From: Alphaproteobacteria bacterium
Lineage (GTDB): Bacteria; Pseudomonadota; Alphaproteobacteria; Micropepsales; Micropepsaceae
Assembly (NCBI GenBank): GCA_019242395.1
Contig: JAFAVP010000246.1
Span: forward strand, 1-37,818
Direction of reading: 5' to 3'
DNA: 37,818 bases
Below, in pieces: positions 1 to 27,176 of the stretch. The notes below the pieces were generated by a model. The model saw only the letters and a program-made list of their open reading frames with translations. It was not told the origin of the DNA and ran no database searches. The number at the start of each line of letters is the position of its first letter. Position 1 is the first letter of the stretch. The position numbers and the translations under genes were made by a program.

Positions 1-1
1 C

Positions 2-490
2 ATCGTCTACGCCGTGTCCGGCTCTGCCCTCACGGTGCTGCACAGCTTCTGCACGTTGAACCAGTGCTGGGATGGCAGCCAAGGCGAGGGCCTCGTCAAG
101 GATGCACAGGACAATCTCTATGGCGTTGCCGATTCCAACAAGGGTGGTGCCGCTTTCCAGGTTACGCCGGCGGGGCAATACAATCTGCTCTACGCATTCT
201 GCCAGACTGACGGTTGCGCCGATGGCCAATCGCCCTCCGGGCAGTTGCTGCTTTCCGGCGCGGATATTTTCGGGACAACGATCCTCGGCGGAGCTAATGG
301 CAAAGGCGTGGCCTACAAGCTGAGGGGCAGTGCGGAGAGCGTGCTCTATGACTTCTGCGTGCAATCGGGCTGCACGGACGGTAGTGGCCCGGACTCCGCA
401 ATGGTTATGGACGGCGCAGGCGATCTGTTCGGCACGACGCTGTACGGCGGCGCGGCGGGCGAGGGCTCGGTGTTCGAACTGATTCCGTAG
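2..490 (+). CDS. GloVer-repeat secreted protein, 3' part only
   Basis: The reading frame is open from base 2, so this is the C-terminal end of a gene that begins before the window; the GTG at 14 in the ORF track is internal. It carries about three tandem repeats of the type 'LYAFC..DGCADGQSPSGQLLL...FGTTILGG', each with a paired-cysteine 'FC...CxDG' element and a 'GTT..GG' turn. This is the repeat known as GloVer or Gloeo_Verruco, found in exported proteins of unknown function. The same repeat builds the complete gene at 31227-32504, so the window holds two paralogs. It ends 21 bp from the stop of the convergent GLUG operon. No function can be assigned beyond a probably extracellular, beta-rich repeat protein. 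Confidence 0.8.
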   Translation: MVYAVSGSALTVLHSFCTLNQCWDGSQGEGLVKDAQDNLYGVADSNKGGAAFQVTPAGQYNLLYAFCQTDGCADGQSPSGQLLLSGADIFGTTILGGANGKGVAYKLRGSAESVLYDFCVQSGCTDGSGPDSAMVMDGAGDLFGTTLYGGAAGEGSVFELIP

Positions 491-511
491 ACAGGAACTT
501 CGCTGGCGACG

Positions 512-1993
512 CTATTGCTGCGGTGGGTTGTCTCTCAAGAAAGGATAGCCGCCGTTGATAGCGGAATTCTGCCGCCAGTAGCGTTTATCGAAGCCCGTCG
601 GCAGCCCGGATTGTAGCTTGTTGCTCGTCAGACCAGTGATGCCGGGATCGTATTTTGGAAAGCCGGCACCATCCCCGCGGTTGGAAAACCCGCTGGTGTC
701 TACATCCCAGTACGCGGTGTCGATCGCCTCGTTGGCATCGTAGCCGGCAAACCCGCCCGTGTACTTCTTACTGCCAGTAACTGCCCCGATGCTGTAGGCG
801 TACTCGACGGAACCAACATTGTAGCCGACGAAACCGCCAGCCGCGCCACCTGCGCCGTTCACACTTCCCATGGCGTAGCTGTTTGTGATGCTCCCGCGGT
901 TCGAACCGGCAAACCCTCCCGTGTTGTTCTTGCTTCCGGAGACACTACCGGTCGCGTAGGAGGATTCGATATCGTAGCTGTTGTTGCCGACGAGCCCGCC
1001 GCTGTCGATCACCCCGTTCACCGATCCGCTGGCGAACGAATCGTAGATGTACCAATCATTTTGCCCTGCAATGCCGCCCGCCTGACCTCCTCTGACCGTC
1101 GCCGATGACCTCGTTAATGCGATGGAAGCGGCGTCGTTGATTCCGGCAACGCCTCCTGCATCGGCCTGGCCGCTGCCGCTGATCTGCCCCGAAACGGCAA
1201 CGTGGCTGATGCTGCCGCCATTACAGCCGGTTACACCGCCAACATGCTGGCTGCTCCTGTCGAGCAGAACTGTCAGGTTGCTGAGGCTGAAATATGAGAT
1301 GTAACCCTGATTGGCGGCAATCATGCCCTGGCAGAGCTTCCGGCCCTTCTGAATGGTGAGATCGCTGATGGTGTGACCGAGGCCCAGAAACACCCCTGAA
1401 AAACTTTCAATCGGAGCTTTGGAGAACTGGTCGTTTGCCGCATCGTAGTCACCGGCCAGTGCAAAGTAGCCACTGGGATTGGCGGTGATGCCGCTTGCGA
1501 GCGTGGGGAAATCTGCCGCTAGTGTATAGGCATGGCCTCCGATCGAAAAGACGCTGTTCGTGCTCGAGAAGGTCACTGCAATGCCTTCCACGAAAGCTGC
1601 CCCGCCCGATATGACCAAGCCGCCGCCGCCGAGGACAGAAACAGGAGCATCGATCTTGACATACGCTCCGTAGGTTCCGCCCAGCGAAAGCTTGCTCACG
1701 GTGGACCAACTCAAGGGCGCTGCGATCCGGATGTTTCGAACGTCTTTATAGCGGTGCCCCACCAAGAATTGCGTGCTGACCGTTAGATCCGACGCGGCCA
1801 GCAGGTTTTCCAGATCGGTCACGTTCAAAACGGCATGAAAGTTCGTCGGACTGCACACACCCGCCGAACAGGTCATGTTCTGCGTCGGATCGTTGGAAAT
1901 GACGATCTCCCCGTGCGGCCTACTGGCCCATGCCACGGACGAACCCTGGAGCGCGACAATGGTGGCGGCGAGTAAGGCTTTGCGCGTGTCCAT
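512..1993 (-). CDS. GLUG-repeat exoprotein, paralog 4 (last of operon)
   Basis: A 493-residue exported protein. Residues 1-23 form a signal peptide ending 'SSVAWA'. A short 'CSAGVC' motif follows, shared by all four paralogs and possibly a disulfide. Next are a beta-rich segment like those in filamentous-haemagglutinin-type proteins, a 'YTLAADFPTLASGI..NPSGYFALAGDYDA' block, then Gly/Ser-rich GLUG-type repeats ('GGLVGNNS..IESSYATGSV'). The C-terminus is the family signature 'YWDVDTSG...GLTSNKLQSGLP.GFD...W......NGGYPFLRDNPPQQ'. The ATG at 1993 has an AAGGAG ribosome site about 7 nt upstream. It lies 9 bp after the preceding paralog and is the most divergent of the four in its N-terminal half. 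There is no two-partner-secretion domain, beta-barrel or sorting tail, so its surface fate is unknown. Confidence 0.85.
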   Translation of the reverse strand: MDTRKALLAATIVALQGSSVAWASRPHGEIVISNDPTQNMTCSAGVCSPTNFHAVLNVTDLENLLAASDLTVSTQFLVGHRYKDVRNIRIAAPLSWSTVSKLSLGGTYGAYVKIDAPVSVLGGGGLVISGGAAFVEGIAVTFSSTNSVFSIGGHAYTLAADFPTLASGITANPSGYFALAGDYDAANDQFSKAPIESFSGVFLGLGHTISDLTIQKGRKLCQGMIAANQGYISYFSLSNLTVLLDRSSQHVGGVTGCNGGSISHVAVSGQISGSGQADAGGVAGINDAASIALTRSSATVRGGQAGGIAGQNDWYIYDSFASGSVNGVIDSGGLVGNNSYDIESSYATGSVSGSKNNTGGFAGSNRGSITNSYAMGSVNGAGGAAGGFVGYNVGSVEYAYSIGAVTGSKKYTGGFAGYDANEAIDTAYWDVDTSGFSNRGDGAGFPKYDPGITGLTSNKLQSGLPTGFDKRYWRQNSAINGGYPFLRDNPPQQ

Positions 1994-2002
1994 GTGATCT
2001 CC

Positions 2003-3649
2003 TTACTTACTTTGCTGTGGCGGGTTGGCGAGCAGGTACGGGTAGCCGTTGTTGATATCAGGCGATTGGCCCCAGATGTTCGGATCGAACCCGTCTGGCA
2101 ACCCGGATTTCAGCTGCGCATCGGTGAGGCCGGCGATCCCCGAGCAATTGCCAACTCCACAACCTTTGCTCAGGCCGCTGGTATCCATGTCCCAATAGCC
2201 CGCTGAGGCCGTGGCGTCCTTGTATTCATATCCCACAAACCCGCCGCTGTAGGTGGCACCTCCCGCCGTTCCGAGCGCGTAAGCCTGATCGACCGGCCCA
2301 TCGTTGAAGCCCAGCAATCCGCCGGCATACAGCTTGCCGGAAGCGGAGACCTTGCCGGTGGCATAGGACTGCGAAATCGCAGTACCGCCATTGTCTCCGA
2401 CCAGGCCCCCTATGGACGCGGAGCTGTCGCCGCCCTTTACGTTGCCGGTGGCGAAGGATTGAACGATCTGCCCGGCTTCGGCACTCGAACCCACAAGGCC
2501 GCCCAAATTGGTCGTTTCGCTATCGCCGGCAACGTCGCCGCTCGCCGACGACCGAAGGATGGTGCCGCCGAAGATCACGCCCACCAGTCCGCCTGCGCCA
2601 CCGTTCAGTCCTAGGGTGTCGCGAACGTTGCCGCTGGCGTGCGAGTCCTGAATCGTCCCGCGGTTTATGCCGGCCAATCCCCCGGCATCGCCTTCGCCCA
2701 CCACATCGGCGCTGCTGCGGGAAGAACTGATGATGCCGTTGTTGGAGCCGGCCAGCCCACCGGCCGCGACATAGTCAGTAGACACCGTTCCCGAGCTTTG
2801 AGATTGATCGATGGTGCCGTAATTGTCGGCCACCAATCCGCCGCCGTTCGCACCCGTGATGGTCGCGGCAATGGCGGAAGCATAGCGGATGGTTCCGCTG
2901 TTCTGGCCAGCCAGTGCGCCGCCCTCACGATTGCGCGCATCCACAACGGCGTTCGACAGAATGATGTCCCGGACCAAAGCGGACTTCTTCATCTGGCCGA
3001 ACAGGCCGACATACTTCTCACCCGACTGAATTTTCAGGCTGTCGATCGTATGCCCCAAGCCTTCGAAGGTTCCTTTGAGGAGCGGAACAGGCGGAAGCTT
3101 GTATGTGCCATCCGCACCCGCCGCGTAATCCACCGCGAACGCAAAACTGCCGGATGGATTGGCCCCAACGATGCTGGCCAGTGTCTTGATGTCCTTCGCA
3201 AGGGCGTAGCTCCTGCCATTGATGATGAGGCTGCTGGAGGTATCCCAGAAATCGATCTTGCCCTTGTCGAAGAACCTGAGGTCCCCACCCGTGCCGCCGT
3301 CGTTGTAGGTGAGGGTGAGGGCGCCTTGGCCGGCAACGGTCACTGGCTTGCGCAGGCCGATACTGGTCTTTGCATCCAACGTCAGGCGGCTGGTGCTGGT
3401 CCAGGAGAATCCATCGTTGACCTGAATGGCCAGCGCGCCGCCGCCGTACTTCACGGTGACATCGCCGGCGGAGAGCATGTCCGTCAGTTCACTGACGTTC
3501 AGGTTGGCGCTCTTCGCAGTAGCCGTACAAACACCCGCGTTGCAACTCACATCGTGCGTCGGCTTCTTGGAGACCGTCAGGTCAGCCCGCGCGCCGGTCG
3601 CGAACACCAGCGCCAGCATCGGAATGAAGAAGCGGATATCGTTGTGCAT
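2003..3649 (-). CDS. GLUG-repeat exoprotein, paralog 3
   Basis: A 548-residue exported protein. The track starts this frame at 3994, but its first 115 residues are an out-of-frame reading of the upstream paralog. The true start is the ATG at 3649: it has a GGGGAT ribosome site and is followed by a signal peptide ('MHNDIRFFIPMLALVFATGARA'). The mature N-terminus 'DLTVSKKPTHDVSCNAGVC' matches the paralogs upstream. The central block 'FFDKGKIDFWDTSSSLIINGRSYAL' precedes many GLUG repeats of the form 'GGLAGSNNGIISSSRSSADV'. It ends 'GYPYLLANPPQQSK'. It starts 17 bp after the paralog at 3667-5319, so the genes are surely co-transcribed. Function unknown; the repeats resemble those in bacterial adhesins. 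Confidence 0.85.
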   Translation of the reverse strand: MHNDIRFFIPMLALVFATGARADLTVSKKPTHDVSCNAGVCTATAKSANLNVSELTDMLSAGDVTVKYGGGALAIQVNDGFSWTSTSRLTLDAKTSIGLRKPVTVAGQGALTLTYNDGGTGGDLRFFDKGKIDFWDTSSSLIINGRSYALAKDIKTLASIVGANPSGSFAFAVDYAAGADGTYKLPPVPLLKGTFEGLGHTIDSLKIQSGEKYVGLFGQMKKSALVRDIILSNAVVDARNREGGALAGQNSGTIRYASAIAATITGANGGGLVADNYGTIDQSQSSGTVSTDYVAAGGLAGSNNGIISSSRSSADVVGEGDAGGLAGINRGTIQDSHASGNVRDTLGLNGGAGGLVGVIFGGTILRSSASGDVAGDSETTNLGGLVGSSAEAGQIVQSFATGNVKGGDSSASIGGLVGDNGGTAISQSYATGKVSASGKLYAGGLLGFNDGPVDQAYALGTAGGATYSGGFVGYEYKDATASAGYWDMDTSGLSKGCGVGNCSGIAGLTDAQLKSGLPDGFDPNIWGQSPDINNGYPYLLANPPQQSK

Positions 3650-3666
3650 GCTGATCCCCAGGTTGC

Positions 3667-5319
3667 CTATTGTGGTGGATTGGCGAGGAGGTACGGGTAG
3701 CCATTGTTGATGTTCGGGTTGCTGCCCCAGATGTTCGGATCGAAACCTTCCGGCAGCCCGGATTTCAGCTGCGCATCGGTGAGGCCTTTCACACCGCCTT
3801 CGCCATGTTTGTTTCCGAAAGCCCAGTCTGTGCCGCTCGTATCTCGATCCCAGTACATGGACTGGAAGACCGCGCGGCGAAGGTCGCGCCCGTAACCGGC
3901 AATTCCGCCGCCCCTGGAAAGAGCGCCAACTGAGTACGAGTTGGTGCTCGAGATGAAGCGGCCATAATAATCTCCCACTAGCCCGCCTATGCAACTGCTG
4001 GGCCCTCCGATGACAGAACCAGTTGCGTATGAATCGTCGATTACGTGCACATAGCTCTTGCTGGAAAAGTTCCCGGACACACCAACCAATCCGCCGGCAG
4101 CGAATCCGCAGGGAGAAGCAACGCCGCCACCGACAGTGACGGTGCCTGTGGCATAATCATTGGTCAGGATGCCGCTTGAGTTTACGCCAACCAATCCGCC
4201 GACCCATTGAATCGAGCTGCTCGCGGCGCCGGCGGCGTGGGAAAACGAAATCGTGCCGTGATTTTCGCCTACCAGTCCTCCCACCTCAGTTATGCCCACA
4301 GCGGTCACGGGACCGCTTTCGAAGGAATGATCTATCAGTGCCGTCTCTGTGACATATCCGGCAAGTCCTCCCACCGTGCCGTAAACGCCCCCTTCGGGTC
4401 CTCTGACATAAACCCTCATTGTCGAACTGGATCGCTCGACAAGGCCGCCCACCATGCCCGCAAGCCCGCCAACGGATTCCGTCGGAACGGCACCCTGAAC
4501 GGTAAGAGAACCGGAAGAAGATATCCCCACCAGCGCACCATTGTTGGTGCCGGCGAGCGAGCCCACCACCGCGACGTTGTTGTCACCCCCCTTGCTGGAA
4601 ATCCTTGCATCCGTAATGGCCAGGTCCCGCACAGCTCCTCCTGCCAAGATATTGGCGATGAAGGCCGTAGCCGCTGAATTGCTGCTCGAGATTTTCAGGT
4701 TTCGTACGGCATGTCCCAGACCTTCCACGATTCCACCCACCGCGGCCGAAATTGGGGAAGCTTTGTATTTGCCGTCCGCGGCTGCATCGTAATCCTGGGC
4801 TAGGGCGAAAAGTCCGCGAGGGTTGTTTGCCACGCTTTTTGCCAAGGACTTGATGTTGGTTAGGAGTACGTAGGAATTGCCGTTGATGGTCAGCCTGCTG
4901 CTGGCAGGCGATAAGAAGTCGATCCTTCCCTGATCGGAGAATTTGAGATCGCCTGTCGTGCCGCCATCGTCGTAGATAAGGCTGAACGCGCCGCCGCCAT
5001 TCACGAACACAGGCTTATGGAATCCCACCGAGGTATTGGCGTCCAGTGTCAGCAGGCTGGTGCTGCCCCAGGAAAATCCATTTACTACCTGAATGGCGCT
5101 GGCACCGCCGCCGAACCTCACCGTCGCATCGCCGTCAGCTAAGAGGCTTTCAAGCTCGCTTACGTTCAGGTTCGCATTCTTCGCGGTGGCAGTGCACACA
5201 CCGCTCACGCAGCTCACATCGTGCGATGGTTTTGCTGAAATCAACAGGTCTGCATGTGCGGCTGTTGCTACTGTCAGGGCGGCAGAGGCAAGCAGGATGC
5301 TGCGAACGAGCGATTCCAC
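3667..5319 (-). CDS. GLUG-repeat exoprotein, paralog 2
   Basis: A 550-residue exported protein starting at a GTG at 5319, with GGAG six nt upstream. The signal peptide ends around 'ATAAHA', followed by 'DLLISAKPSHDVSCVSGVC', the shared N-terminal cysteine motif. The beta-rich N-terminal domain and 'NNPRGLFALAQDYDAAADGKYK' block precede a GLUG repeat region ('GGLVGVNSSGILTNDYATGTV'). The C-terminal signature 'GLTDAQLKSGLPEGFDPNIWGSNPNINNGYPYLLANPPQ' is nearly identical to that of paralog 3, which suggests recent duplication or gene conversion of that end. It follows the first gene of the operon by 12 bp. No catalytic residues or membrane segments besides the signal peptide are visible. Confidence 0.85.
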   Translation of the reverse strand: MESLVRSILLASAALTVATAAHADLLISAKPSHDVSCVSGVCTATAKNANLNVSELESLLADGDATVRFGGGASAIQVVNGFSWGSTSLLTLDANTSVGFHKPVFVNGGGAFSLIYDDGGTTGDLKFSDQGRIDFLSPASSRLTINGNSYVLLTNIKSLAKSVANNPRGLFALAQDYDAAADGKYKASPISAAVGGIVEGLGHAVRNLKISSSNSAATAFIANILAGGAVRDLAITDARISSKGGDNNVAVVGSLAGTNNGALVGISSSGSLTVQGAVPTESVGGLAGMVGGLVERSSSTMRVYVRGPEGGVYGTVGGLAGYVTETALIDHSFESGPVTAVGITEVGGLVGENHGTISFSHAAGAASSSIQWVGGLVGVNSSGILTNDYATGTVTVGGGVASPCGFAAGGLVGVSGNFSSKSYVHVIDDSYATGSVIGGPSSCIGGLVGDYYGRFISSTNSYSVGALSRGGGIAGYGRDLRRAVFQSMYWDRDTSGTDWAFGNKHGEGGVKGLTDAQLKSGLPEGFDPNIWGSNPNINNGYPYLLANPPQ

Positions 5320-5331
5320 TTATTTCTCCAC

Positions 5332-6990
5332 TTATTGCGGCGGATTGGCGAGAAGGTAGGGATAGCCTTCGTTGATCTTCGGCGATTGCGACCAGACTTT
5401 CGGGTCGAGCCCCTCCGGCAAGGCCGACTTCAGCTTGGCGTCCGACAGGCCCTTGATTCCGGGGTCATTGCGCACATTGCCCGCACCCTGAGTGGGATCG
5501 GTGATACCGCTGGTGTCGATATCCCAATAGCCATGTTGAATGCCGCCTTGGTGAAGGTCGCTGCCAACGAAGCCGCCAAGTTGCGAGCCAAAATCCTGAT
5601 TTGCGGTAACAAGGCCCGTGGAATAGGCCTCTGCGATGTTGCCGAAGTTCTCTCCAACCAGTCCGCCTACGTCACCTCGGTCTGTGGCCACGGCACCGCG
5701 CGAATATGCATCGCGTACGGTACCCGTATTGTAGCCGATGAGGCCGCCGGCAGGATTAGCGCCGGACTGGACTCGCGCCGTTGCAGGGCCGGTTGCGAAA
5801 GAGGTGCGAACCGTCCCCGCGCTGGTGCCAACCAGCCCGCCAGCCCAATAATAGGAGCCGAGGACGTCGCCCGTCGCATACGAACGATCGACCGTGCCGC
5901 TGGCATTAAGCTGGCCTACCAAACCGCCTGATGGGCCTGAGTTGCCTTCCAGGCCAACATTGCCCGTGGCGTGCGAGCTTACGATTGCAGCAGAAGAGAA
6001 GCCTGCGAGCCCTCCGGCTCCGCTTCCTCCGGACACGTTGGCGGACGACGCGGATGCTTCAAGCACACCGGAGGACAGCGAACCAACGATGCCTCCTGCG
6101 GGGGAACCGGCAACCGTGCCGCTGGAGTCGCAACGGAAGATCGTGCCCGTATTCGTTCCCGCAATACCTCCGGCAGGCCCATTTCCAAGCCGGAGAATTT
6201 TTCCATTCGCCGTGTCGCCGATGAGCAAGCCAGAATTGTCCGCCACGATCCCGCCCGCCGACCCGCCATGGGATTTTATGAACACGTTCAGCAGAAGAAG
6301 ATCGCGGATTGTGCCAGACGACTGCGCGACCAGAGCTGCCGGTCGTTTGGTTTTGACCGACAGATTGGAAATGGTATGGCCCAATCCTTCGATGACCCCC
6401 TGGAGCCCAGTGCTGACGGGGCTGCGGTTGTAGCTACCGTCCAACAAGGCGTCGTGGTCTTCGGAAAAGGCGTACATTCCGGATGGATCGTCCTTTACGG
6501 CATCGTCCAATATTCGCAGGTCGTTGATGAGAACATAGCGGCTGTTGTTGATAATCAGGCTGCTGGATGTATCCCAGAAATCGATCTTGCCCTTATCCAA
6601 GAATTTGAGATCGCCGTCTGTGCCGCTGTCGCTGTAGGTGAGGGTGAGCGCGCCGGTCCCGGCAACGGTCATTGGCGCTTTGACGGCGATGTCCTTCTTT
6701 GCCTGCAGCGTCAACCGGCTCGTGCTGCTCCAGCCGAAGGCATCGGCAACGGTGATGCTTGGCGTCGTCTGATTGCCATTGCCGCTTTCTATGATGACAT
6801 CTCCGGCGGAGAGCATGTTCGTCAGTTCACTGACGTTCAGGTTGGCGCTTTTCGCGGTCGGCATGCAGACGCCGGCCGAGCAACTCACATCATGCGTGGG
6901 CTTTTTGGAGAGGGAGAAATCGGCCTGGGCGGCGCTGGAGAACAAGCCGAACACTGCCGCGAGACTTGGCAGATACGTGATATGGTGCAT
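5332..6990 (-). CDS. GLUG-repeat exoprotein, paralog 1 (first of operon)
   Basis: A 552-residue exported protein. The ORF track opens this frame at 7164, but the start consistent with its paralogs is the ATG at 6990. It is preceded by GGGGGGAAG and followed by the signal peptide 'MHHITYLPSLAAVFGLFSSAAQA'. Mature sequence begins 'DFSLSKKPTHDVSCSAGVC'. The middle has the 'LDKGKIDFWDTSSSLIINNSRYVL' block and then GLUG repeats such as 'GGIVGSLSSGVLEASASSANVSG'. The end is 'GYPYLLANPPQ'. It is the promoter-proximal gene of a four-gene paralog array whose promoter must lie in the 308-bp region upstream. Family knowledge supports only a secreted or surface repeat protein; adhesion is a guess. Confidence 0.85.
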   Translation of the reverse strand: MHHITYLPSLAAVFGLFSSAAQADFSLSKKPTHDVSCSAGVCMPTAKSANLNVSELTNMLSAGDVIIESGNGNQTTPSITVADAFGWSSTSRLTLQAKKDIAVKAPMTVAGTGALTLTYSDSGTDGDLKFLDKGKIDFWDTSSSLIINNSRYVLINDLRILDDAVKDDPSGMYAFSEDHDALLDGSYNRSPVSTGLQGVIEGLGHTISNLSVKTKRPAALVAQSSGTIRDLLLLNVFIKSHGGSAGGIVADNSGLLIGDTANGKILRLGNGPAGGIAGTNTGTIFRCDSSGTVAGSPAGGIVGSLSSGVLEASASSANVSGGSGAGGLAGFSSAAIVSSHATGNVGLEGNSGPSGGLVGQLNASGTVDRSYATGDVLGSYYWAGGLVGTSAGTVRTSFATGPATARVQSGANPAGGLIGYNTGTVRDAYSRGAVATDRGDVGGLVGENFGNIAEAYSTGLVTANQDFGSQLGGFVGSDLHQGGIQHGYWDIDTSGITDPTQGAGNVRNDPGIKGLSDAKLKSALPEGLDPKVWSQSPKINEGYPYLLANPPQ

Positions 6991-7298: not shown

Positions 7299-8939
7299 GT
7301 GAAAGAGCACCCGTGGTGGCGCGGCGCCATCATCTACCAGATCTATATCCGCAGCTTCTGCGACTCCAACGGCGACGGAATTGGGGATCTACCGGGCGTC
7401 ATCTCCAAGCTCGATTACATCCGCTCCCTCAACGTGGACGCGATTTGGCTGTCGCCTATTCATCCTTCGCCGGACCGCGACTGGGGCTATGATGTCTCCA
7501 ATTACGAAGGCATTCATACGGATTACGGCACCCAGGCGGATTTTGACCGGCTGCTGACCGAGGCGCATGCCCGCGGCCTCAAGGTGATGACGGATGAGGT
7601 GCTGGCGCACACCTCCGACGAGCATCCCTGGTTCGTGGACTCCCTTCAGCGGGGCCCGAAGTCGGACTGGTATGTCTGGGCCGAGCCGAAGCTGGATGGC
7701 ACGGCACCCAACAACTGGCTCTCAGCCTTTGGGGGCCCGGCATGGTCGTATCAGCCGGCCCGGCGCGAATACTATCACCACAAATTTCTGCGCCAGCAGC
7801 CGAAGCTGAATTGGCGGAACGGTAAGGCGAGGGCCGCGGCGCTCAAGGTGCTGGAGCACTGGCTCACGCGCGGCGTGGACGGCTTCCGTCTCGATGTTGC
7901 CAATGCCTATCTGCACGATGCGGCCCTGGCGGATAACCCCGCCGTGCGTATGGCGGAGCGCACCGACGCGCTGTGGAGCCATGCGCCGTACCTGCAATTC
8001 CATCATCACGACAGCAACCTACCGGAAAATATTGAGGTTCTGGATGAAATCCGGCGGGTGGTGGAACGCTACCCCGATCGCTTCGTGATGGGCGAATTTT
8101 CCGAAGACCCCGCGCGCTGCGGCTGCTTCGCCGCGCCGGACGAGGGGCTGCATTCGGGCTATAGCTTTCCGCTGCTGAAGGCGCGCGAGCTGGGCCCAGG
8201 ATTCGTGCACCTGCATTACAATCTGCTGTCGCGCTTTCCGGCGCATTGGCCGTCCGTCGCCTTCTCCAATCACGACGTCATGCGCACGGTTTCGCGCTTC
8301 GGCGGCCCCGAGCCGCCGGAAGGGTTGGGCAAGTTGCTGCTGGCGCTGCTGCTGTCGCTCAAGGGCACCGCGTTGCTGTACCAGGGCGAGGAGCTGGCGT
8401 TGCCGGAAGCAGACATTCGCCGCGACCAGATTCGCGATCCCGTCGGCGATCTCTATTGGCCCTATACCGGCGGCCGCGATGGCTGCCGCACGCCGATGCC
8501 GTGGGATGCCGCAGCTGCAAATTTGGGATTCTCGACCGGCACGCCCTGGCTCCCGCTATCCCGGAAGCACCAGGCGCTGGCTGTCTCCCACCAAGAGGGG
8601 AACGACAATTCTGCGCTGGATTTCATGCGCCGCTTTTCGGCCTTCCGGCAGAAGAGCGCCGCCCTGCGCTGGGGCGAGATCAGGTTTGTGGATGCGCCGC
8701 CACCGCTGCTCGCCTTTGAGCGCGAATACGAGGGCGATAAGTTGCTGTGCTTGTTCAATATGAGCGGGGAAGCCACTGAATTCAGAGATGAATCCATACT
8801 TGAGCGCGAGCCGCTCGGAATTGGATGCGGGGCAGCCGCACGGCGGGACGGCTTGCTGAAGCTGGGTCCTTATTCCAGCTGGTTTGCTGCCTTGTCGAAC
8901 GCATCGAGCACCGCTTCGATGGGCAACAGCACGCAGTGA
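7299..8939 (+). CDS. GH13 alpha-glucosidase
   Basis: A 546-residue alpha-amylase-superfamily enzyme that hydrolyses terminal alpha-glucosidic bonds of maltose-type or isomaltose-type oligosaccharides. It opens 'WWRGAIIYQIYIRSFCDSNGDGIGDLPG', the usual GH13 oligosaccharidase start. Conserved region I is 'TDEVLAHTSDEHPWF' (about 98-112), a form seen in proteobacterial GH13 alpha-glucosidases (subfamily 23 type). The nucleophile is D199 ('GFRLDVANAY'), the acid/base E266 ('FVMGEFSED') and the transition-state Asp D326 ('FSNHDVMR'). No signal peptide is visible, so it is probably cytoplasmic. The start is a GTG with only a weak ribosome site. Its last 70 nt overlap the end of the convergent scaffold-protein gene. 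Exact substrate is not readable from sequence. Confidence 0.9.
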   Translation: MKEHPWWRGAIIYQIYIRSFCDSNGDGIGDLPGVISKLDYIRSLNVDAIWLSPIHPSPDRDWGYDVSNYEGIHTDYGTQADFDRLLTEAHARGLKVMTDEVLAHTSDEHPWFVDSLQRGPKSDWYVWAEPKLDGTAPNNWLSAFGGPAWSYQPARREYYHHKFLRQQPKLNWRNGKARAAALKVLEHWLTRGVDGFRLDVANAYLHDAALADNPAVRMAERTDALWSHAPYLQFHHHDSNLPENIEVLDEIRRVVERYPDRFVMGEFSEDPARCGCFAAPDEGLHSGYSFPLLKARELGPGFVHLHYNLLSRFPAHWPSVAFSNHDVMRTVSRFGGPEPPEGLGKLLLALLLSLKGTALLYQGEELALPEADIRRDQIRDPVGDLYWPYTGGRDGCRTPMPWDAAAANLGFSTGTPWLPLSRKHQALAVSHQEGNDNSALDFMRRFSAFRQKSAALRWGEIRFVDAPPPLLAFEREYEGDKLLCLFNMSGEATEFRDESILEREPLGIGCGAAARRDGLLKLGPYSSWFAALSNASSTASMGNSTQ

Positions 8940-12267: not shown

Positions 12268-12992
12268 TCGAATTGCGGCTCGGCCGCGAACATGTAGCCA
12301 CCGCCCCACACGGTTTTGATGTAGCGGGGATTCTTCGGATCGGGTTCCAGCTTGCGGCGTAGCCGGCTCACATGATTGTCGATGCTGCGGTCGAACAATT
12401 CGGCATCACGGCCCTTCGTGAGATCGAGGAGCTGGTTGCGCGTCAGCGCAATTTTCGGCCGCTCGATCAGGGCTCGCAACAGGCTGAACTCACCGCTGGA
12501 CAGGGGGGTTGCGACCCCATCGGCTCCAACCAGTTCCCGCTGCCCAGTGTCGAGCGTCCAGTCTCCGAAGCGGATGCGTTCCGCCTCCGGCGGTTTCTGC
12601 CGCGGCGGCAGCGCCTGTGTGCGCCGGAGCACGGCGGCAATTCGAGCGATCAGCTCGCGCGGGCTGAACGGCTTCGCTATGTAGTCGTCAGCGCCCATTT
12701 CGAGCCCGATGATGCGATCCACTTCCTCACCCCGCGCCGTGAGCAGGATCACCGGCGTTTGCCCCGTTTCGCGGATCGAGCGGCAAAGGCTCAGGCCATC
12801 CTCGCCTGGCATCATGATGTCGAGCACCACGAGATCGATGCCCGAGCTGCGCAAAATCTTGCGCGCCGCCATCGCCTCTGGAGCCGTCGTGGTGCGGTAG
12901 CCATGCTCCCGGAGATACCGGGCCAGCGGCTCGCGGATATCGCGGGCGTCCTCCACGATCAGAATGTGCGGCTTGGCCTCTTCCCGAACCAT
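12264..12992 (-). CDS. OmpR-family response regulator
   Basis: A 242-residue two-domain regulator. The receiver domain (about 8-122) has the phosphorylated D58 in 'LVVLDIMMPGEDG', T85 and K107 ('YIAKPFSPREL'). The winged-helix DNA-binding domain (about 140-237) ends 'NPRYIKTVWGGGYMFAAE'. The start is the ATG at 12992 with GGAG about 8 nt upstream; the track's extra 34 N-terminal residues are Arg/Pro-rich and unlike the family. It heads a four-gene minus-strand run (regulator, kinase, MocA fusion, scaffold) with spacings of -4, +9 and -4 nt. It is divergent from the EF-hand gene, so the 177-bp region between them probably carries its binding site. The target genes are not known. Confidence 0.93.
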   Translation of the reverse strand: MVREEAKPHILIVEDARDIREPLARYLREHGYRTTTAPEAMAARKILRSSGIDLVVLDIMMPGEDGLSLCRSIRETGQTPVILLTARGEEVDRIIGLEMGADDYIAKPFSPRELIARIAAVLRRTQALPPRQKPPEAERIRFGDWTLDTGQRELVGADGVATPLSSGEFSLLRALIERPKIALTRNQLLDLTKGRDAELFDRSIDNHVSRLRRKLEPDPKNPRYIKTVWGGGYMFAAEPQFE

Positions 12993-13169
12993 AAGTCGGC
13001 TCCCGACGAGACGATGCGGCGGCGCAGGCGCTCGTGCAATGGCATTTGTCGCAAATCGTCGCTGGACCGCAGGGACCTTCAGCAATGCGACCATTTGCAG
13101 GCCTCAAGACAAAGCTTCGCGACACGGCTCCGTTTATGTAAGGTCGTAGAGAGACAAGGGGGGATAATC

Positions 13170-14021
13170 ATGCGGAGCTTCATTCGCTACGGTCTGATCG
13201 CAGGCGCGGTAGTCACCGCCGCAATTGGGGTAGCAGGCGCTGGAATGCAGAACCATCCGGCACCGGTCAATTCCCGCCAGGGCGGCCACCTGCAGCAGCC
13301 GCGCGGTCATGGCCGGGGCGGTCAGCGGTTCCTTGGCGAGTATGACCTCAACCATGATGGAAAGGTCACGCGGGATGAGTTCAACAAGGCCACGGCGCAG
13401 CAATTCGCTCAGGCGGGACATGGCGCCAAGTTCCTGACCGCAGCACAGTACGAGGCGTTCCGGACGCGAACCCTGCATCAGCATGCGGATCAGATTTTCC
13501 GCCGGGCCGACTGGAATTCAGACGGCAAGCTGACCTTCGATGAGTTTGCCAACCCCATCCGGGCGAGCTTTGCGCGAGCGGACCGGCAATCGGCTGGCGC
13601 GATCTTATGCCATCCGAGAAGCGGGGACAACGGGCAGTCGTCCGGACAGCCGCACAGGCGGCGCGGTGGGTCGCGAGGCGTTGGCGCCTTTTGCGCCCGC
13701 GACGACCTGAACCACGATGGCAGGATCACCCGTGCAGAGTTGGATCAGGCACTGCATCAGCAGTTTGCGTCGGTGGCCAAGGGTGGGTCTATGACCAAGG
13801 AGCAATTCGAGGCCATGCAGCATTCCCGCGCGGAAGCCACCAGCGGACGAACCTTCGGACGGATCGACAGCGACGGTGATGGCAAGGTCAGCCTGCAGGA
13901 ATTCACGGCGTACCAGCAGCGGACCTTTACCCGCATGGACGAGAATGGCGACGGCACAATCACCCGCGATGAGATGAGCTCGCGCCGGAACTATGCCTCG
14001 CACTCGAGCAACCGGACGTAA
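13170..14021 (+). CDS. Exported protein with five EF-hand calcium loops
   Basis: A 283-residue protein. The track ORF (from 12372) is far too long because its first 266 residues are antisense to the response regulator. The real start is the ATG at 13170, preceded by AAGGGGGGAT and followed by a signal peptide ('MRSFIRYGLIAGAVVTAAIGVAGAGM'). Five canonical EF-hand loops are visible, each D-x-(N/D)-x-D-G and ending in Glu: residues 59-70, 114-125, 179-190, 233-244 and 257-268. They fall as two pairs plus one, separated by a basic Gln/Arg/Ser-rich linker (about 138-172). It should bind calcium outside the cytoplasmic membrane; a further role is unknown. It stands alone between the two molybdenum-related clusters and is divergent from the two-component system, which could regulate it. 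Confidence 0.88.
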   Translation: MRSFIRYGLIAGAVVTAAIGVAGAGMQNHPAPVNSRQGGHLQQPRGHGRGGQRFLGEYDLNHDGKVTRDEFNKATAQQFAQAGHGAKFLTAAQYEAFRTRTLHQHADQIFRRADWNSDGKLTFDEFANPIRASFARADRQSAGAILCHPRSGDNGQSSGQPHRRRGGSRGVGAFCARDDLNHDGRITRAELDQALHQQFASVAKGGSMTKEQFEAMQHSRAEATSGRTFGRIDSDGDGKVSLQEFTAYQQRTFTRMDENGDGTITRDEMSSRRNYASHSSNRT

Positions 14022-21892: not shown

Positions 21893-24052
21893 GTGAACCA
21901 GCGGCCCACACTGTTGAAACCACTCGGCCCAGCAAGCCTCGCCGAACAGGATGATTTTCATCTCGGCGATATTCTCGTTCAACCATCGCTGCGGGAAATC
22001 CGAGCCGGTGAAACGCGCGAGATCCTGGAGCCCCGCGTGATGCAGGTGCTAGTGGCGCTGGCGCGCGCCAATGGTGCCGTGCTCTCGCGCGATGAGCTGA
22101 TCCGCCAATGCTGGGGCGGGCGCATTGTCGGCGACGATGCGATCAACCGCTGCGTCTCGAAAGTGCGGCAGCTGGCTGACCTGGGCGGGAAGGCCTTCGA
22201 GATCGAAACGATTCCCCGCGTTGGCTATCGGTTACGCAGAACGGGTACCTGTGCCACGCTGCCAGAAACGAGGCAAAACGTTCGGCAGGAGCAGGTCGCA
22301 ACCATAGCCGAGGCCGCAACTCCGGCATCGCAAGCGCGGGTTACGAATCGCCGCAGACTGATCCTCATCGCCCTCGCTGGAATACTAGTCATTCCCGGGA
22401 TCGTTGCCGCCATTTCCTATTTCCTGCCTCTAAGGCCGAAGGAATGGACGATTGTCGAATCTCACATGCCGTTCATCGCCACGCCTTTGGTGGAGAGGGC
22501 GCCCGATTTCTCGCCGAACGGTTGGATGATCGCTTATTCCGCCGGACCGGACTATCTTCACCGCAGCATCTATGTACGCTTGATAAGCGGCGGCGAGCCG
22601 CTTCGTCTGGTTGGCCCTCCATTGAGCAGCTATTCGCCGGTGTGGTCCCCAGACGGCAGCCAGATCGCTTTCCATATCTTCACTCCCCGCGAGCCATGCA
22701 AAATCATGCTCGTTGCGGCCCTGGGTGGACAGCCGCGCGAGATCGGCCGCTGCAGAACGGCAACATTTTCCACCTTGGCTTGGGATCGGCCCGGAGGGGG
22801 CATGCTCTTCACCGACTCACCGAACAATCACACTCCTGTCGCAATCTATCGTCTTGATCTCAGTGGCGGCCCCCTGCGACAGCTGACACATCCGCAGGGT
22901 GGACCGGCCGGGCGCGACGGCAGCGGCACCATTTCGCCGGACGGCAAGACCCTGGCGTTCCTGCGGCAGATTGGTGCGGCCCGAAACCAGATCATCCTTC
23001 AAGACCTGGCGACCGGAGCAGAACGCGTGCTGCTTTCGACTAAGGACGATGATGACCCATTGGCGTGGTCAAACGATTCCTCGGCGTTATTCGTGGGCCG
23101 GAACATTCCCTGGGATTCCTCGCTGTGGGCTTACCCGGTGGATGGTAGCGCAGCGCAGCGCATCACCAATCTGGCGGAGAACATCGGGTGGGTGTCGTCA
23201 GGGCCGAACGGCTTGGTGGCGATGGATCTGGAGCGAAGCGAATATGACATCGCGATCGCCTCTCCTTTGCCTGGACAGCCGGGCAAGAGTCTCGATGCCG
23301 ACGGATGGAGCCCCTATTCCCTTGCCTATTCGCGTGACGGAGTTTTGGCGGCGACCGCGCGGCGTTCCGGCGTGACCAGCTTGCTGCTTAGCGGAAGCGA
23401 TGGCGCGCTCCACGAACTGCTTCAACTTAAGAATGATACAGCCGGCTTCGTGACCTGGTCGCCTGACGGCTCGCGGCTTGCGTTCGCAGAGCCCGCCAAT
23501 GCCAGTTTCACAATCATGGTTGTGAATCGCCGCGGTGAAATTGTGAAGCGAGTACCCTATCGCGCACAGGAGATGGGGGGGCTCGCTTGGAGCGAGGATG
23601 GCCAGAACTTGCTCGTCACCAGCGAAGACGCCCGTGGTTGGCGCACATGGCAGGTCGCTTTAGCTCGCAATGGCACCCCGCAGGCTGTTATGCCGTACGG
23701 TTGGAGGTCCGTCGTAGCGCGCGGCCGCATGATGTTCGGTGTCAAAAGTGGCACGAAAGGCATATGGCGGCTGGACGGCACACCCCGAAAGATCACCAGC
23801 GAGCCCGATGACAATTCGGGTTTCTGGGAGATATCTGGCGACCGGATCATCTATGGGGATTTCAGCAATCCGGATGTACCCGTGGCGATGGCCGTGCCTG
23901 TTACTGGTGGAACCCCCAAGCCGATCGGATATCTCGCTGGACCAATTTTGGGCAGCAAGATCGCATTCAATCCGAAAACCGGGCTCGTGGCCTATTTGCG
24001 GGTAACCCGGCAGGACACAGACATTGGTTGGCTGCGCGTTGCCCGAAAGTAG
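21893..24052 (+). CDS. Membrane-anchored winged-helix regulator with TolB/PD40-like propeller (copy 1)
   Basis: A 719-residue CadC/ToxR-type one-component protein. Residues about 20-115 are an OmpR-like winged helix ('LEPRVMQVLVALARANGAVLSRDELIRQCWGGRIVGDDAINRCVSKVRQL', ending 'IETIPRVGYRLRR'). There is no receiver domain. One membrane helix (about 155-178) separates it from a periplasmic region of about 540 residues rich in propeller strands: 'PVWSPDGSQIAFHIF', 'TISPDGKTLAFLR', 'VTWSPDGSRLAFAEP'. The start is a GTG at 21893; the paralog's ATG aligns exactly (both have 14 residues before 'SLAE'), supporting it. It would sense a periplasmic ligand and act on DNA from the membrane. The obvious target is the divergent secreted-protein gene 306 bp away. 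Ligand unknown. Confidence 0.88.
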   Translation: MNQRPTLLKPLGPASLAEQDDFHLGDILVQPSLREIRAGETREILEPRVMQVLVALARANGAVLSRDELIRQCWGGRIVGDDAINRCVSKVRQLADLGGKAFEIETIPRVGYRLRRTGTCATLPETRQNVRQEQVATIAEAATPASQARVTNRRRLILIALAGILVIPGIVAAISYFLPLRPKEWTIVESHMPFIATPLVERAPDFSPNGWMIAYSAGPDYLHRSIYVRLISGGEPLRLVGPPLSSYSPVWSPDGSQIAFHIFTPREPCKIMLVAALGGQPREIGRCRTATFSTLAWDRPGGGMLFTDSPNNHTPVAIYRLDLSGGPLRQLTHPQGGPAGRDGSGTISPDGKTLAFLRQIGAARNQIILQDLATGAERVLLSTKDDDDPLAWSNDSSALFVGRNIPWDSSLWAYPVDGSAAQRITNLAENIGWVSSGPNGLVAMDLERSEYDIAIASPLPGQPGKSLDADGWSPYSLAYSRDGVLAATARRSGVTSLLLSGSDGALHELLQLKNDTAGFVTWSPDGSRLAFAEPANASFTIMVVNRRGEIVKRVPYRAQEMGGLAWSEDGQNLLVTSEDARGWRTWQVALARNGTPQAVMPYGWRSVVARGRMMFGVKSGTKGIWRLDGTPRKITSEPDDNSGFWEISGDRIIYGDFSNPDVPVAMAVPVTGGTPKPIGYLAGPILGSKIAFNPKTGLVAYLRVTRQDTDIGWLRVARK

Positions 24053-24737: not shown

Positions 24738-24828
24738 CACCAATGCTCCTTTGCTTGAGGCGCCGCCCACCGGCGCCTTCCATGCGAGCCGCGCGAGCCG
24801 GTGGCATTCAGCCAAAGAGCTCCCCTTT

Positions 24829-24849
24829 GGCGTTCCCGTAAGGGACGCC
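24829..24849. promoter_or_regulatory. Conserved inverted repeat, candidate operator (copy 2)
   Basis: GGCGTTCC-CGTAA-GGGACGCC is an 8-bp inverted repeat with one G:T pair, followed by TTGGCATAA. Position and arms match 21680-21700 while the loop differs. Candidate site for the winged-helix regulator. Confidence 0.5.
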
Positions 24850-24914
24850 TTGGCATAATGTCAGCCGTTCTATCCGGCCGAAGGGGTATATGCCGGGGAT
24901 GTCTGCGTCGCTCT

Positions 24915-24965
24915 CTTTGCTCCTGTTTGCCGTTCCGGCACGCGCCAGTTCGTGGCGCAATTGCA
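24915..24965. promoter_or_regulatory. Highly conserved noncoding block (copy 2)
   Basis: Partner of 21765-21814: begins CTTTGCTCCTGTTTGCCG, contains TGCCG-TTC-CGGCA, and differs at four positions plus one inserted T. Conservation between duplicated modules whose proteins have diverged indicates selection on DNA or RNA rather than on protein. Confidence 0.6.
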
Positions 24966-25043
24966 GAGCATTGCGGCGGCATTCGAAAGGACCTGAGCCT
25001 GACGGCACGCTTGCGGTTCGTCGACGAAGCCGGTGAATCGCCG

Positions 25044-27176
25044 ATGAACTACGAATCGCGCAACGTGAAAGCCGTTCCCGCGATCAGTCTCGCGGAGGAA
25101 GCGGACTTTTCCATTGGGCCGTTGCGCGTGTGTCCGTCGGCAAGGCTGGTCAATGTTGGTGAGCGGAGTGAGACCATCGAGCCTCGCGTCATGCAGGTGC
25201 TGGTGGTGCTGGCGCGCGCCGCGGGCAATGTGGTGTCCCGCGAACAGCTGATCGACCGCTGCTGGGGCGGCAGAATCGTCGGCGACGATGCCGTCAGTAG
25301 CACCATTGTTAAGGTGCGCGCACTGGCCAGGCTTTGCGCCGAGCCGGCCTTTGAAATCGAGACCATCCCCAGGGTCGGCTATCGCCTGATCCGGCGCGAA
25401 ACGGTTACCGGCGAGCCTCTCTCTGCTGACCCTGTCTCTTCTGCTGTACCATCCAAGTTCCCATCCTGGCGCTGGCTGCTGGCCGGGTTGGCCGTTGCTA
25501 TCGCCGCGCTCGTAGGGAGCTTGATTGCGGCGCGCTATCTTTATTCGAGCCATGAGGCCGAATGGATAGTGGCGGAATCTCACATGCCGTTCATTGCCAC
25601 GGCTGACATCGAATCGTTTCCGGCCATCGCACCGGACGGGACGATGATCGCCTATGCGGCGGGTCCAGACAGGCAAAGCCGGCACCTCTACTTGCGTCTG
25701 ATCAAGGGTGGAGATCCGATCCAGCTCACCCACGATGCATACGATGCGGCCGCCCCGGCATGGTCACCGGACGGCAAAACGATCGTCTATAGGATTTCCC
25801 AGGAAGGACATCCCTGCGGGATTATGGAAATTTCGGTTCCGGCCGGACAACCGCGCGAAGCCGGACGATGCCGGGTCAGTCAATGGTCCGAATTCTCCTT
25901 CGATCCATCCGGCCGCTCCCTCTTTTATGTCGACGCTCCTGCTCCCGGGGCACCGGAGGGAATCTTCAGGCTCGATCTCGATAACGGACGCGTCTCTGCC
26001 GTTACGCATCCTGCACGCAGGTCCGTTTCTGACGGATTTCCTGCCGTCTCGCCGGGCGGCCGCGAGTTGCTGTATGTACGCAATATCGAGTCTGCCGCAG
26101 TCGAGGTCCGCGTTCTGACATTTGCGAGCGGTGCTGACCGCCGCATTGCGGCATTCGAAGGCACCGACGCAACCGCAACTTGGTCGAAAGACGGCCAGAC
26201 CATTTTTCTTTCGCGGTCGTCGGAAGTCGACGGCGACAAATCGCTATGGGCGTATCCTCTATCGCGCGGCAATCCTTCGCGCATTCTGACAACCGGCGAT
26301 CATCTCGGCAGGCTCTCGGCTGGACCTGACGGACTGCTGGCGATGGAAATGTCCTACCCCGGCGGGCAACTTGTGGCAGTCACCCCCCATTCCGGCCTGC
26401 CGCCGAAGCCGATTCCGAGCAACGGCCTTTACACATGGTGTGTAGACTACGCTCCGGATGGGACATTCCTGGCGACGGGCCGGCGCGGGGAGACGCAGGG
26501 AGTCTGGATCGGCGGCAAGAACGGTTCTCTGCATGAGTTGCTCAGCACAGGTGCCGAGACCTGGGCTCTTCGCTGGTCGCCAGATGGGACGCGGTTTGCC
26601 TTCACCGCATGGTTGCACCGGCGCCGCTTCGAGGTGCGAGTGTTCAAGCGGGAGGGTGAGCCGATCGCGCAATTTCGCTTCCAGAGCAACGACTACTCCG
26701 GCCTTCTCGACTGGACCGCCGATGGCAAAAGCATTCTGACCAGCCGCCAGGAGACGAAAGGCTGGCGCATCTGGAAAACCGATCTCGCAACGCCGGGCAA
26801 GTCCGTCCCGATCACGCCCTATGGCTGGCGCGATCCGCGGGTCCACGGAACCATGCTGTTGGCCACAAGGGACGGAGTTGCAGGCATCTGGCGCATCGAT
26901 GGAACGCCGCGCCGCGTGGCAGATGGGCCGGCGCCGGAACGCTCTTACGTTTACACCATTGCCGGAGATCGCCTCGTCTATTCTGACACGAGCGATCCCA
27001 AACACCCGATGTTTTCAGCAGTGAGCCTCAACGGCGGTCCAAAGGAGCGGCTGGCGCCGCTGCCGGACGGGCAGTACGACTTCACGTTCGGGGTCGATCC
27101 GAAATCGGGCGACATCGTCTACACGCAAGAGACTGACAACCGGGACATCGGCCTGCTGCGGATGGTGAAACGGTAA
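25044..27176 (+). CDS. Membrane-anchored winged-helix regulator with TolB/PD40-like propeller (copy 2)
   Basis: A 710-residue paralog of the protein at 21893. The track start at 24801 adds 81 residues of intergenic translation; the ATG at 25044 aligns with the paralog's start. The winged helix spans about 20-117 ('IEPRVMQVLVVLARAAGNVVSREQLIDRCWGGRIVGDDAV', ending 'FEIETIPRVGYRLIRRE'). One membrane helix lies at about 144-167. The juxtamembrane motif 'EWIVAESHMPFIAT' is shared with copy 1 ('EWTIVESHMPFIAT') and then the propeller begins ('PAWSPDGKTIVYRISQ', 'LRWSPDGTRFAFTAW'). The C-terminus 'DNRDIGLLRMVKR' also matches. The DNA-recognition region is close to identical between copies ('CWGGRIVGDDA'), suggesting overlapping DNA targets. 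The more diverged propellers suggest different signals. Confidence 0.88.
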   Translation: MNYESRNVKAVPAISLAEEADFSIGPLRVCPSARLVNVGERSETIEPRVMQVLVVLARAAGNVVSREQLIDRCWGGRIVGDDAVSSTIVKVRALARLCAEPAFEIETIPRVGYRLIRRETVTGEPLSADPVSSAVPSKFPSWRWLLAGLAVAIAALVGSLIAARYLYSSHEAEWIVAESHMPFIATADIESFPAIAPDGTMIAYAAGPDRQSRHLYLRLIKGGDPIQLTHDAYDAAAPAWSPDGKTIVYRISQEGHPCGIMEISVPAGQPREAGRCRVSQWSEFSFDPSGRSLFYVDAPAPGAPEGIFRLDLDNGRVSAVTHPARRSVSDGFPAVSPGGRELLYVRNIESAAVEVRVLTFASGADRRIAAFEGTDATATWSKDGQTIFLSRSSEVDGDKSLWAYPLSRGNPSRILTTGDHLGRLSAGPDGLLAMEMSYPGGQLVAVTPHSGLPPKPIPSNGLYTWCVDYAPDGTFLATGRRGETQGVWIGGKNGSLHELLSTGAETWALRWSPDGTRFAFTAWLHRRRFEVRVFKREGEPIAQFRFQSNDYSGLLDWTADGKSILTSRQETKGWRIWKTDLATPGKSVPITPYGWRDPRVHGTMLLATRDGVAGIWRIDGTPRRVADGPAPERSYVYTIAGDRLVYSDTSDPKHPMFSAVSLNGGPKERLAPLPDGQYDFTFGVDPKSGDIVYTQETDNRDIGLLRMVKR

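What the first reader, a model, noticed from the sequence alone, without database searches (positions are those of the whole stretch)
512..6990. Operon of four tandem GLUG-repeat exoproteins
Four exported paralogs of about 490-552 residues sit head to tail with gaps of 9, 17 and 12 bp. They share a 'C-x-x-G-V-C' motif after the signal peptide and a 'GYPYLLANPPQ' ending. Paralogs 2 and 3 are nearly identical at the C-terminus, suggesting ongoing recombination. None has a two-partner-secretion domain, autotransporter barrel or sorting tail, so export past the outer membrane, if it occurs, uses an unknown route. The conserved C-terminus could be the export or assembly signal.
Basis: partly seen in the sequence, partly recalled or inferred. 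Interest (0 to 1): 0.6.

Follow-up and report, generated by a model that had tools for sequence, protein, structure and literature searches.

The report
Four stand-alone GLUG beta-helix proteins
Four neighbouring genes in an uncultured alphaproteobacterium make exported, rod-shaped GLUG beta-helix proteins whose conserved tail is the end cap of the fold rather than an export signal; species carrying this gene family also tend to carry a type II secretion machine, which is therefore a testable candidate exporter.

Summary
Four tandem minus-strand genes (493, 548, 550 and 552 aa; gaps 9, 17 and 12 bp) each have a Sec-type leader, an invariant C-x4-C pair, 5-6 GLUG repeats and a GYP[YF]L...NPPQ end. 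They belong to a family with many more copies in the same genome, found as stand-alone proteins in 9 of 69 species of the genus. AlphaFold2 gives a confident beta-solenoid (pLDDT 91 and 89); nearest solved relatives are GLUG helices of M26 IgA1 proteases. It is a cap of the fold. No TPS domain or TpsB is needed: two fully complete carrier genomes have neither. The co-occurring transporter is a type II secretion system: 9/9 carriers versus 10/60 non-carriers (Fisher 1.6e-6), with one GspD clade exclusive to carriers. Shared ancestry could explain this (only 1-3 independent contrasts), and no T2SS gene lies beside the array. Best reading: TPS-less relatives of TpsA passengers, folded and disulfide-bonded in the periplasm, plausibly exported by T2SS. 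'Ongoing recombination' is weakly supported.

The parts
5332..6990 (-). P0002, first gene of the array, 552 aa: leader, C-x4-C cap, GLUG solenoid, end cap
3667..5319 (-). P0004, second gene, 550 aa, GTG start; same architecture
2003..3649 (-). P0001, third gene, 548 aa; AlphaFold2 beta-solenoid, mean pLDDT 91
512..1993 (-). P0003, fourth and most divergent gene, 493 aa; AlphaFold2 beta-solenoid, mean pLDDT 89
3434..3583 (-). N-terminal cap of P0001 (residues 23-72): C36-x4-C41 then one helix; stands where embedded relatives have the TPS part
2012..2215 (-). End cap of P0001 (residues 479-546): YWD.DTSG...GLTDAQLKSGLP.GFDP.IW....INNGYPYLLANPPQ, ordered in the model
7299..8939 (+). Divergent alpha-amylase-family gene; the same divergent pairing with a GLUG array is kept in G045 (L063), so the locus is conserved. 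Not itself part of the system

Best explanation
The array encodes Sec-exported, single-domain right-handed beta-solenoid proteins. They are the passenger half of GLUG-type TpsA exoproteins, in which the TPS domain is missing and a short cap with a conserved C-x4-C pair closes the N-terminal end. The end signature is the C-terminal cap of the solenoid. Shown or strongly computed: architecture, fold, family expansion, independence from TpsB, and that the C-terminus is not a dedicated export signal. Inferred: after Sec translocation the protein folds and forms the disulfide in the periplasm, and is then moved across the outer membrane by the genome's type II secretion system. Outside, it acts as one of up to about 20 variable adhesive or matrix rods whose GLUG core differs between paralogs while both caps are kept.
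For: Fold: AlphaFold2 pLDDT 91.3 and 89.4; the best PDB matches are GLUG helices of M26 proteases 3n6z, 7uvl and 6xja. Leader: A-x-A nearly invariant before the mature start. Passenger logic: in the same genus the module from about model position 70 onward follows a TPS domain and ends in the same cap (L227 of G004, 857 aa; L228 of G023, 783 aa). Caballeronia L049, with a TPS domain, carries related GLUG sequence next to a ShlB/FhaC gene. TpsB is not needed: G003, G013, G035 and G050 lack both TPS and ShlB, and ShlB is not associated with carriers (5/9 vs 20/51, p 0.29). T2SS: GspD or GspG in 9/9 carriers vs 10/60 non-carriers, Fisher 1.6e-6. A GspD clade is found only in 7 carriers, with non-carrier G053 as its sister. 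The own genome has a T2SS operon on C209 (GspF, G, H, I, J, L/M-like, N/C-like, D, K). Literature: T2SS exports fully folded proteins, beta-helix pectate lyases with disulfides formed in the periplasm among them, with a composite structural signal (PMC7949064). Paralogs: core identity 33% and length 168-395, against caps at 54-56%.
Against: The T2SS link is only a phyletic pattern. On the rpoB trees only 1 supported (3-5 unsupported) independent contrast exists, so common ancestry could produce it, and rpoB was not found in 24 genomes. G003 has only GspG and G050 a truncated GspD. No GLUG gene lies in any of the 31 T2SS loci read. Ten non-carriers also have T2SS. No secretome or localisation data exist. 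Signal peptides were judged from the sequence and its conservation, with no predictor at hand. The disulfide and the adhesive role are inferred.
Confidence: 0.45

Rival explanations
1. Periplasmic residents: the proteins lost the TPS domain and with it outer-membrane export, and now stay in the periplasm or leave only in outer-membrane vesicles or by lysis.
For: No sequence-level export signal beyond the leader was found. No adjacent transporter, and no GLUG gene in T2SS loci. The T2SS association is not separable from ancestry.
Against: Many paralogs with a variable core are kept in several species. Relatives elsewhere sit in exported or surface architectures: TPS, T9SS tail, SLH. All nine carriers have T2SS genes.
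Confidence: 0.25
2. Another general Sec-dependent route (for example an unannotated outer-membrane porter or another secretion system not surveyed here) carries them.
For: Not every secretion system was surveyed across the genus: only TPS, ShlB, GspD and GspG were run.
Against: No barrel or sorting family and no lipobox in the sequence. T2SS is a sufficient known route that is present in all nine carriers.
Confidence: 0.2
3. The conserved C-terminus is a dedicated export or assembly signal for an unknown outer-membrane route.
For: In the stand-alone alphaproteobacterial set the signature is within 10 residues of the end in 25 of 27 frames and is well conserved.
Against: TPS-carried relatives have the same end. 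Outside this set it is internal in 60 of 74 occurrences, present in monoderms and archaea, and followed by T9SS or SLH domains. It is predicted as an ordered part of the fold.
Confidence: 0.05
4. The proteins are exported in trans by the genome's single TpsB (ShlB) despite lacking a TPS domain.
For: One ShlB and one TPS exoprotein exist in this genome on C188.
Against: Carriers G003, G013, G035 and G050 have no ShlB and no TPS, two of them at 100% completeness. There is no TPS domain in the proteins.
Confidence: 0.03

Closest known systems
Filamentous-haemagglutinin-type TpsA exoproteins with GLUG passengers (two-partner secretion, type Vb)
   Same: Same solenoid module from about model position 70 to the end cap, in the same genus
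   Different: No TPS domain and no partner TpsB; a C-x4-C cap and plain leader stand in its place
GLUG beta-helix of M26 IgA1 proteases (Peptidase_M26_N; 3n6z, 7uvl, 6xja)
   Same: GLUG-type beta-helix fold (Foldseek E 3e-4 to 1e-3)
   Different: No peptidase part; aligned only partly (TM-score by query 0.26-0.29, 15-16% identity); only the scaffold is shared
GLUG surface proteins of Bacteroidota and related phyla (T9SS) and of Paenibacillus (SLH)
   Same: Same repeats and the same NNGYPYL end cap
   Different: There the cap is internal and a separate Por_Secre_tail or SLH domain follows; here nothing follows
T2SS-secreted beta-helix enzymes (pectate lyases Pel3/PelI, PMC7949064; polygalacturonase PehA)
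   Same: Sec leader, beta-solenoid, periplasmic disulfides, no simple linear export tag
   Different: No enzymatic family detected here; T2SS dependence not shown; different repeat family

Membership tests
GLUG-motif proteins (PF07581) | Repeated Glug motif above the curated cut-off | tested here: met
   22-59 bits vs cut-off 20.5, 5-6 stretches in each of four proteins
GLUG-motif proteins (PF07581) | Beta-helix fold | tested here: met
   AlphaFold2 all-beta solenoid; best PDB matches are GLUG helices of M26 proteases
TpsA exoprotein (two-partner secretion) | N-terminal TPS domain (PF05860) | tested here: not met
   No TPS match in any of the four; the genome's only TPS is on C188
TpsA exoprotein (two-partner secretion) | Cognate TpsB (ShlB/FhaC) partner | tested here: not met
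   The own genome's only ShlB is on C188, not in the window; absent from carriers G003, G013, G035 and G050
T2SS substrate | Cleavable Sec leader and a mature domain that folds in the periplasm | tested here: inconclusive
   Hydrophobic leader with conserved A-x-A and a confident fold; no signal-peptide predictor or experiment
T2SS substrate | Host encodes a T2SS | tested here: met
   Operon on C209; 9/9 carriers
T2SS substrate | Export lost when T2SS is removed | not testable with these tools
   Needs a gspD deletion
T9SS cargo | C-terminal sorting domain (Por_Secre_tail) | tested here: not met
   Absent here, present in Bacteroidota-type relatives
Autotransporter (type Va) | C-terminal beta-barrel | tested here: not met
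   No barrel family; the protein ends at the solenoid cap

The most novel reading that the evidence does not exclude
A lineage-specific repertoire of up to about 20 solenoid adhesin-like proteins per genome arose when a TpsA passenger lost its TPS domain and gained a Cys-pair cap, switching from type V (unfolded, TpsB) to type II (folded, GspD) export. A particular GspD clade travels with the repertoire.
Probability: 0.35. Interest if true: 0.6.

Novelty: new variant of a known kind. Interest (0 to 1): 0.4.

Why it matters
GLUG beta-helix domains are widespread but, in the open papers searched, almost unstudied. This set shows the same rod with the same end cap attached to different export or anchoring devices (TPS, T9SS tail, S-layer anchor, or nothing), so the passenger and the export device can be told apart by sequence alone. 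If the T2SS link holds, it would document a switch of one passenger from unfolded (type V) to folded (type II) export, with a named partner to test. The negative result matters too: the conserved GYPYL tail should not be annotated as a sorting signal.

Tried and rejected
My first rpoB tree was wrong: picking the longest frame selected antisense frames for nine genomes. It was rebuilt with the known strands and again without long or very partial rows; only those are used. Search for a fixed neighbour: window flanking genes recur mainly at L063 of the related genome G045; no GLUG gene in T2SS loci. Phages: no match. Sequence search of PDB: only chance hits. Literature on GLUG and secretion in Alphaproteobacteria: none held. 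Recombination between paralogs 2 and 3: checked and judged weak. Promoter and terminator scans at chance level. Lipoprotein anchoring considered and rejected from the sequence: the conserved Cys lies about 14 residues after the A-x-A site, with no lipobox.

Full report
What is there. The window's first 7 kb hold four minus-strand genes in a head-to-tail array: P0002 (6990-5332, 552 aa), P0004 (5319-3667, 550 aa), P0001 (3649-2003, 548 aa) and P0003 (1993-512, 493 aa), separated by 12, 17 and 9 bp. Each begins with a hydrophobic leader (ending in A-x-A in nearly all family members), then a C-x4-C pair about 14 residues into the mature protein, a region of about 130 residues, 5-6 GLUG repeats, and an end segment of the type YWD.DTSG...GLTDAQLKSGLP.GFDP.IW....INNGYPYLLANPPQ. 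Profile searches find Glug only: no TPS, barrel or sorting family.

It is a family, not four genes. A search of the window's own genome (295 contigs, 99.6% complete) finds more than a dozen further whole or partial copies, many cut by contig ends. In the paralog alignment the two ends are conserved (54% and 56% mean identity; lengths nearly fixed), while the GLUG core is variable (33% identity, 168-395 residues). A 48-position model of the Cys-containing N-cap matches 10 of 69 species of the genus; in nine of them ('carriers': G000, G003, G004, G011, G013, G035, G045, G050, G054) the match lies in stand-alone frames, with up to 22 matches per genome; in the tenth, G020, it is a weak match inside a TPS protein. 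The array position is conserved: in G045 an array starts divergently from the same alpha-amylase-family gene (79% identical), as in the window. G045 also has a four-gene array at another contig end (L062 = L191). The organisms are unnamed; matching database records are titled only 'Alphaproteobacteria bacterium'.

Fold. AlphaFold2 gives confident all-beta solenoids for P0001 (pLDDT 91, pTM 0.90) and for the most divergent paralog P0003 (pLDDT 89). Only the leader and a few loops are disordered. The end segment is ordered, with short helices, as expected of a solenoid cap. The only PDB matches near significance are the GLUG helices of M26 IgA1 proteases (3n6z, 7uvl, 6xja).

The conserved C-terminus is not a dedicated export signal. 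First, in the same genus the same module, from about model position 70 to the same end, is carried behind a TPS domain: L227 (G004, 857 aa...NGGLPYLLVIPPS) and L228 (G023, 783 aa...NDGLPYLISNPPP); Pfam confirms TPS plus Glug in each. TPS proteins are exported through their N-terminal domain (established for two-partner secretion; own knowledge), so their C-terminus cannot be what marks the stand-alone route. Second, outside this set the signature is internal: more than 50 residues follow it in 60 of 74 occurrences, nine frames hold two or more, and it occurs in monoderms (Paenibacillus, Clostridia) and archaea. In the examples scanned it is followed by a T9SS-type sorting domain (L131 Balneolaceae, L128 Bacteroidetes, L100 Ignavibacteriae, L085 Cloacimonadota) or by SLH domains (L102 Paenibacillus). 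It is the fold's end cap, and the export device is whatever is attached.

Route. The proteins do not need TpsB. The own genome has one TPS exoprotein and one ShlB on another contig, but carriers G003, G013, G035 and G050 have neither, two of them at 100% completeness. ShlB is not associated with carriage (5/9 vs 20/51, p 0.29). T2SS genes are in 9/9 carriers and 10/60 non-carriers (Fisher 1.6e-6; GspD alone over cut-off 7/9 vs 9/60, p 2.9e-4). In a GspD tree one supported clade holds only carriers (G000, G004, G013, G035, G045, G050, G054), with non-carrier G053 as its sister. The own genome's copy lies in a recognisable T2SS operon on C209. T2SS moves folded periplasmic proteins, beta-helix pectate lyases with disulfides among them, using composite structural signals (PMC7949064), which fits a protein with a leader, a Cys pair and no other recognisable signal.

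Limits of that inference. On the rpoB trees the carriers need only 3-5 changes, and there are 1 supported and 3-5 unsupported independent contrasts. In none of the pairings did T2SS go the other way, but the contrasts are far too few to exclude shared ancestry. rpoB was not found in 24 genomes, including carriers G011, G035 and G054. No GLUG gene lies in any T2SS locus read. Two carriers have incomplete T2SS evidence (G003: GspG only; G050: truncated GspD). The stand-alone form was seen only in records of this kind among the 80 loci kept. I therefore give the T2SS reading less than even odds.

Recombination. P0001 and P0004 share 35 of 39 terminal residues, but their DNA differs at 15% of sites there, with third positions 69% identical against a family median of 49%. 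Some past exchange or codon constraint is possible; recent conversion is not shown. In a family tree three window genes (P0001, P0002, P0004) fall in one supported set with two other own-genome copies and two G045 copies, and P0003 stands apart.

Verdict. A confirmed observation whose export hypothesis is replaced: stand-alone, TPS-less GLUG solenoids, a new variant of a known kind of exoprotein passenger, with T2SS as a testable but unproven exporter.

Noticed in passing
window 12372-14021 (+): A 549-aa protein with many EF-hand motifs, an unusual calcium-binding repeat protein for a bacterium.
   Followed up: no
window 21893-24052 and 24801-27176 (+): Two tandem paralogs with a winged-helix DNA-binding domain (Trans_reg_C) fused to PD40 beta-propeller repeats.
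   Followed up: no
window 14-490 (+): Fragment at the window edge of a repeat protein; similar repeats occur near a GLUG array in L199.
   Followed up: no
L229 (G020), 1-6297 (-): A 2099-aa TPS exoprotein with three GLUG modules, the first preceded by an N-cap-like segment (INVSDLQTAL) lacking the Cys pair: a possible intermediate.
   Followed up: partly
T2SS loci L206, L209, L213 of G004: Carrier G004 has three GspD genes in two distinct clades.
   Followed up: partly
L033 and L036 (own genome): Two paralogs on different contigs are nearly alike over most of their length (tree distance about 0.2): a recent duplication or exchange.
   Followed up: no
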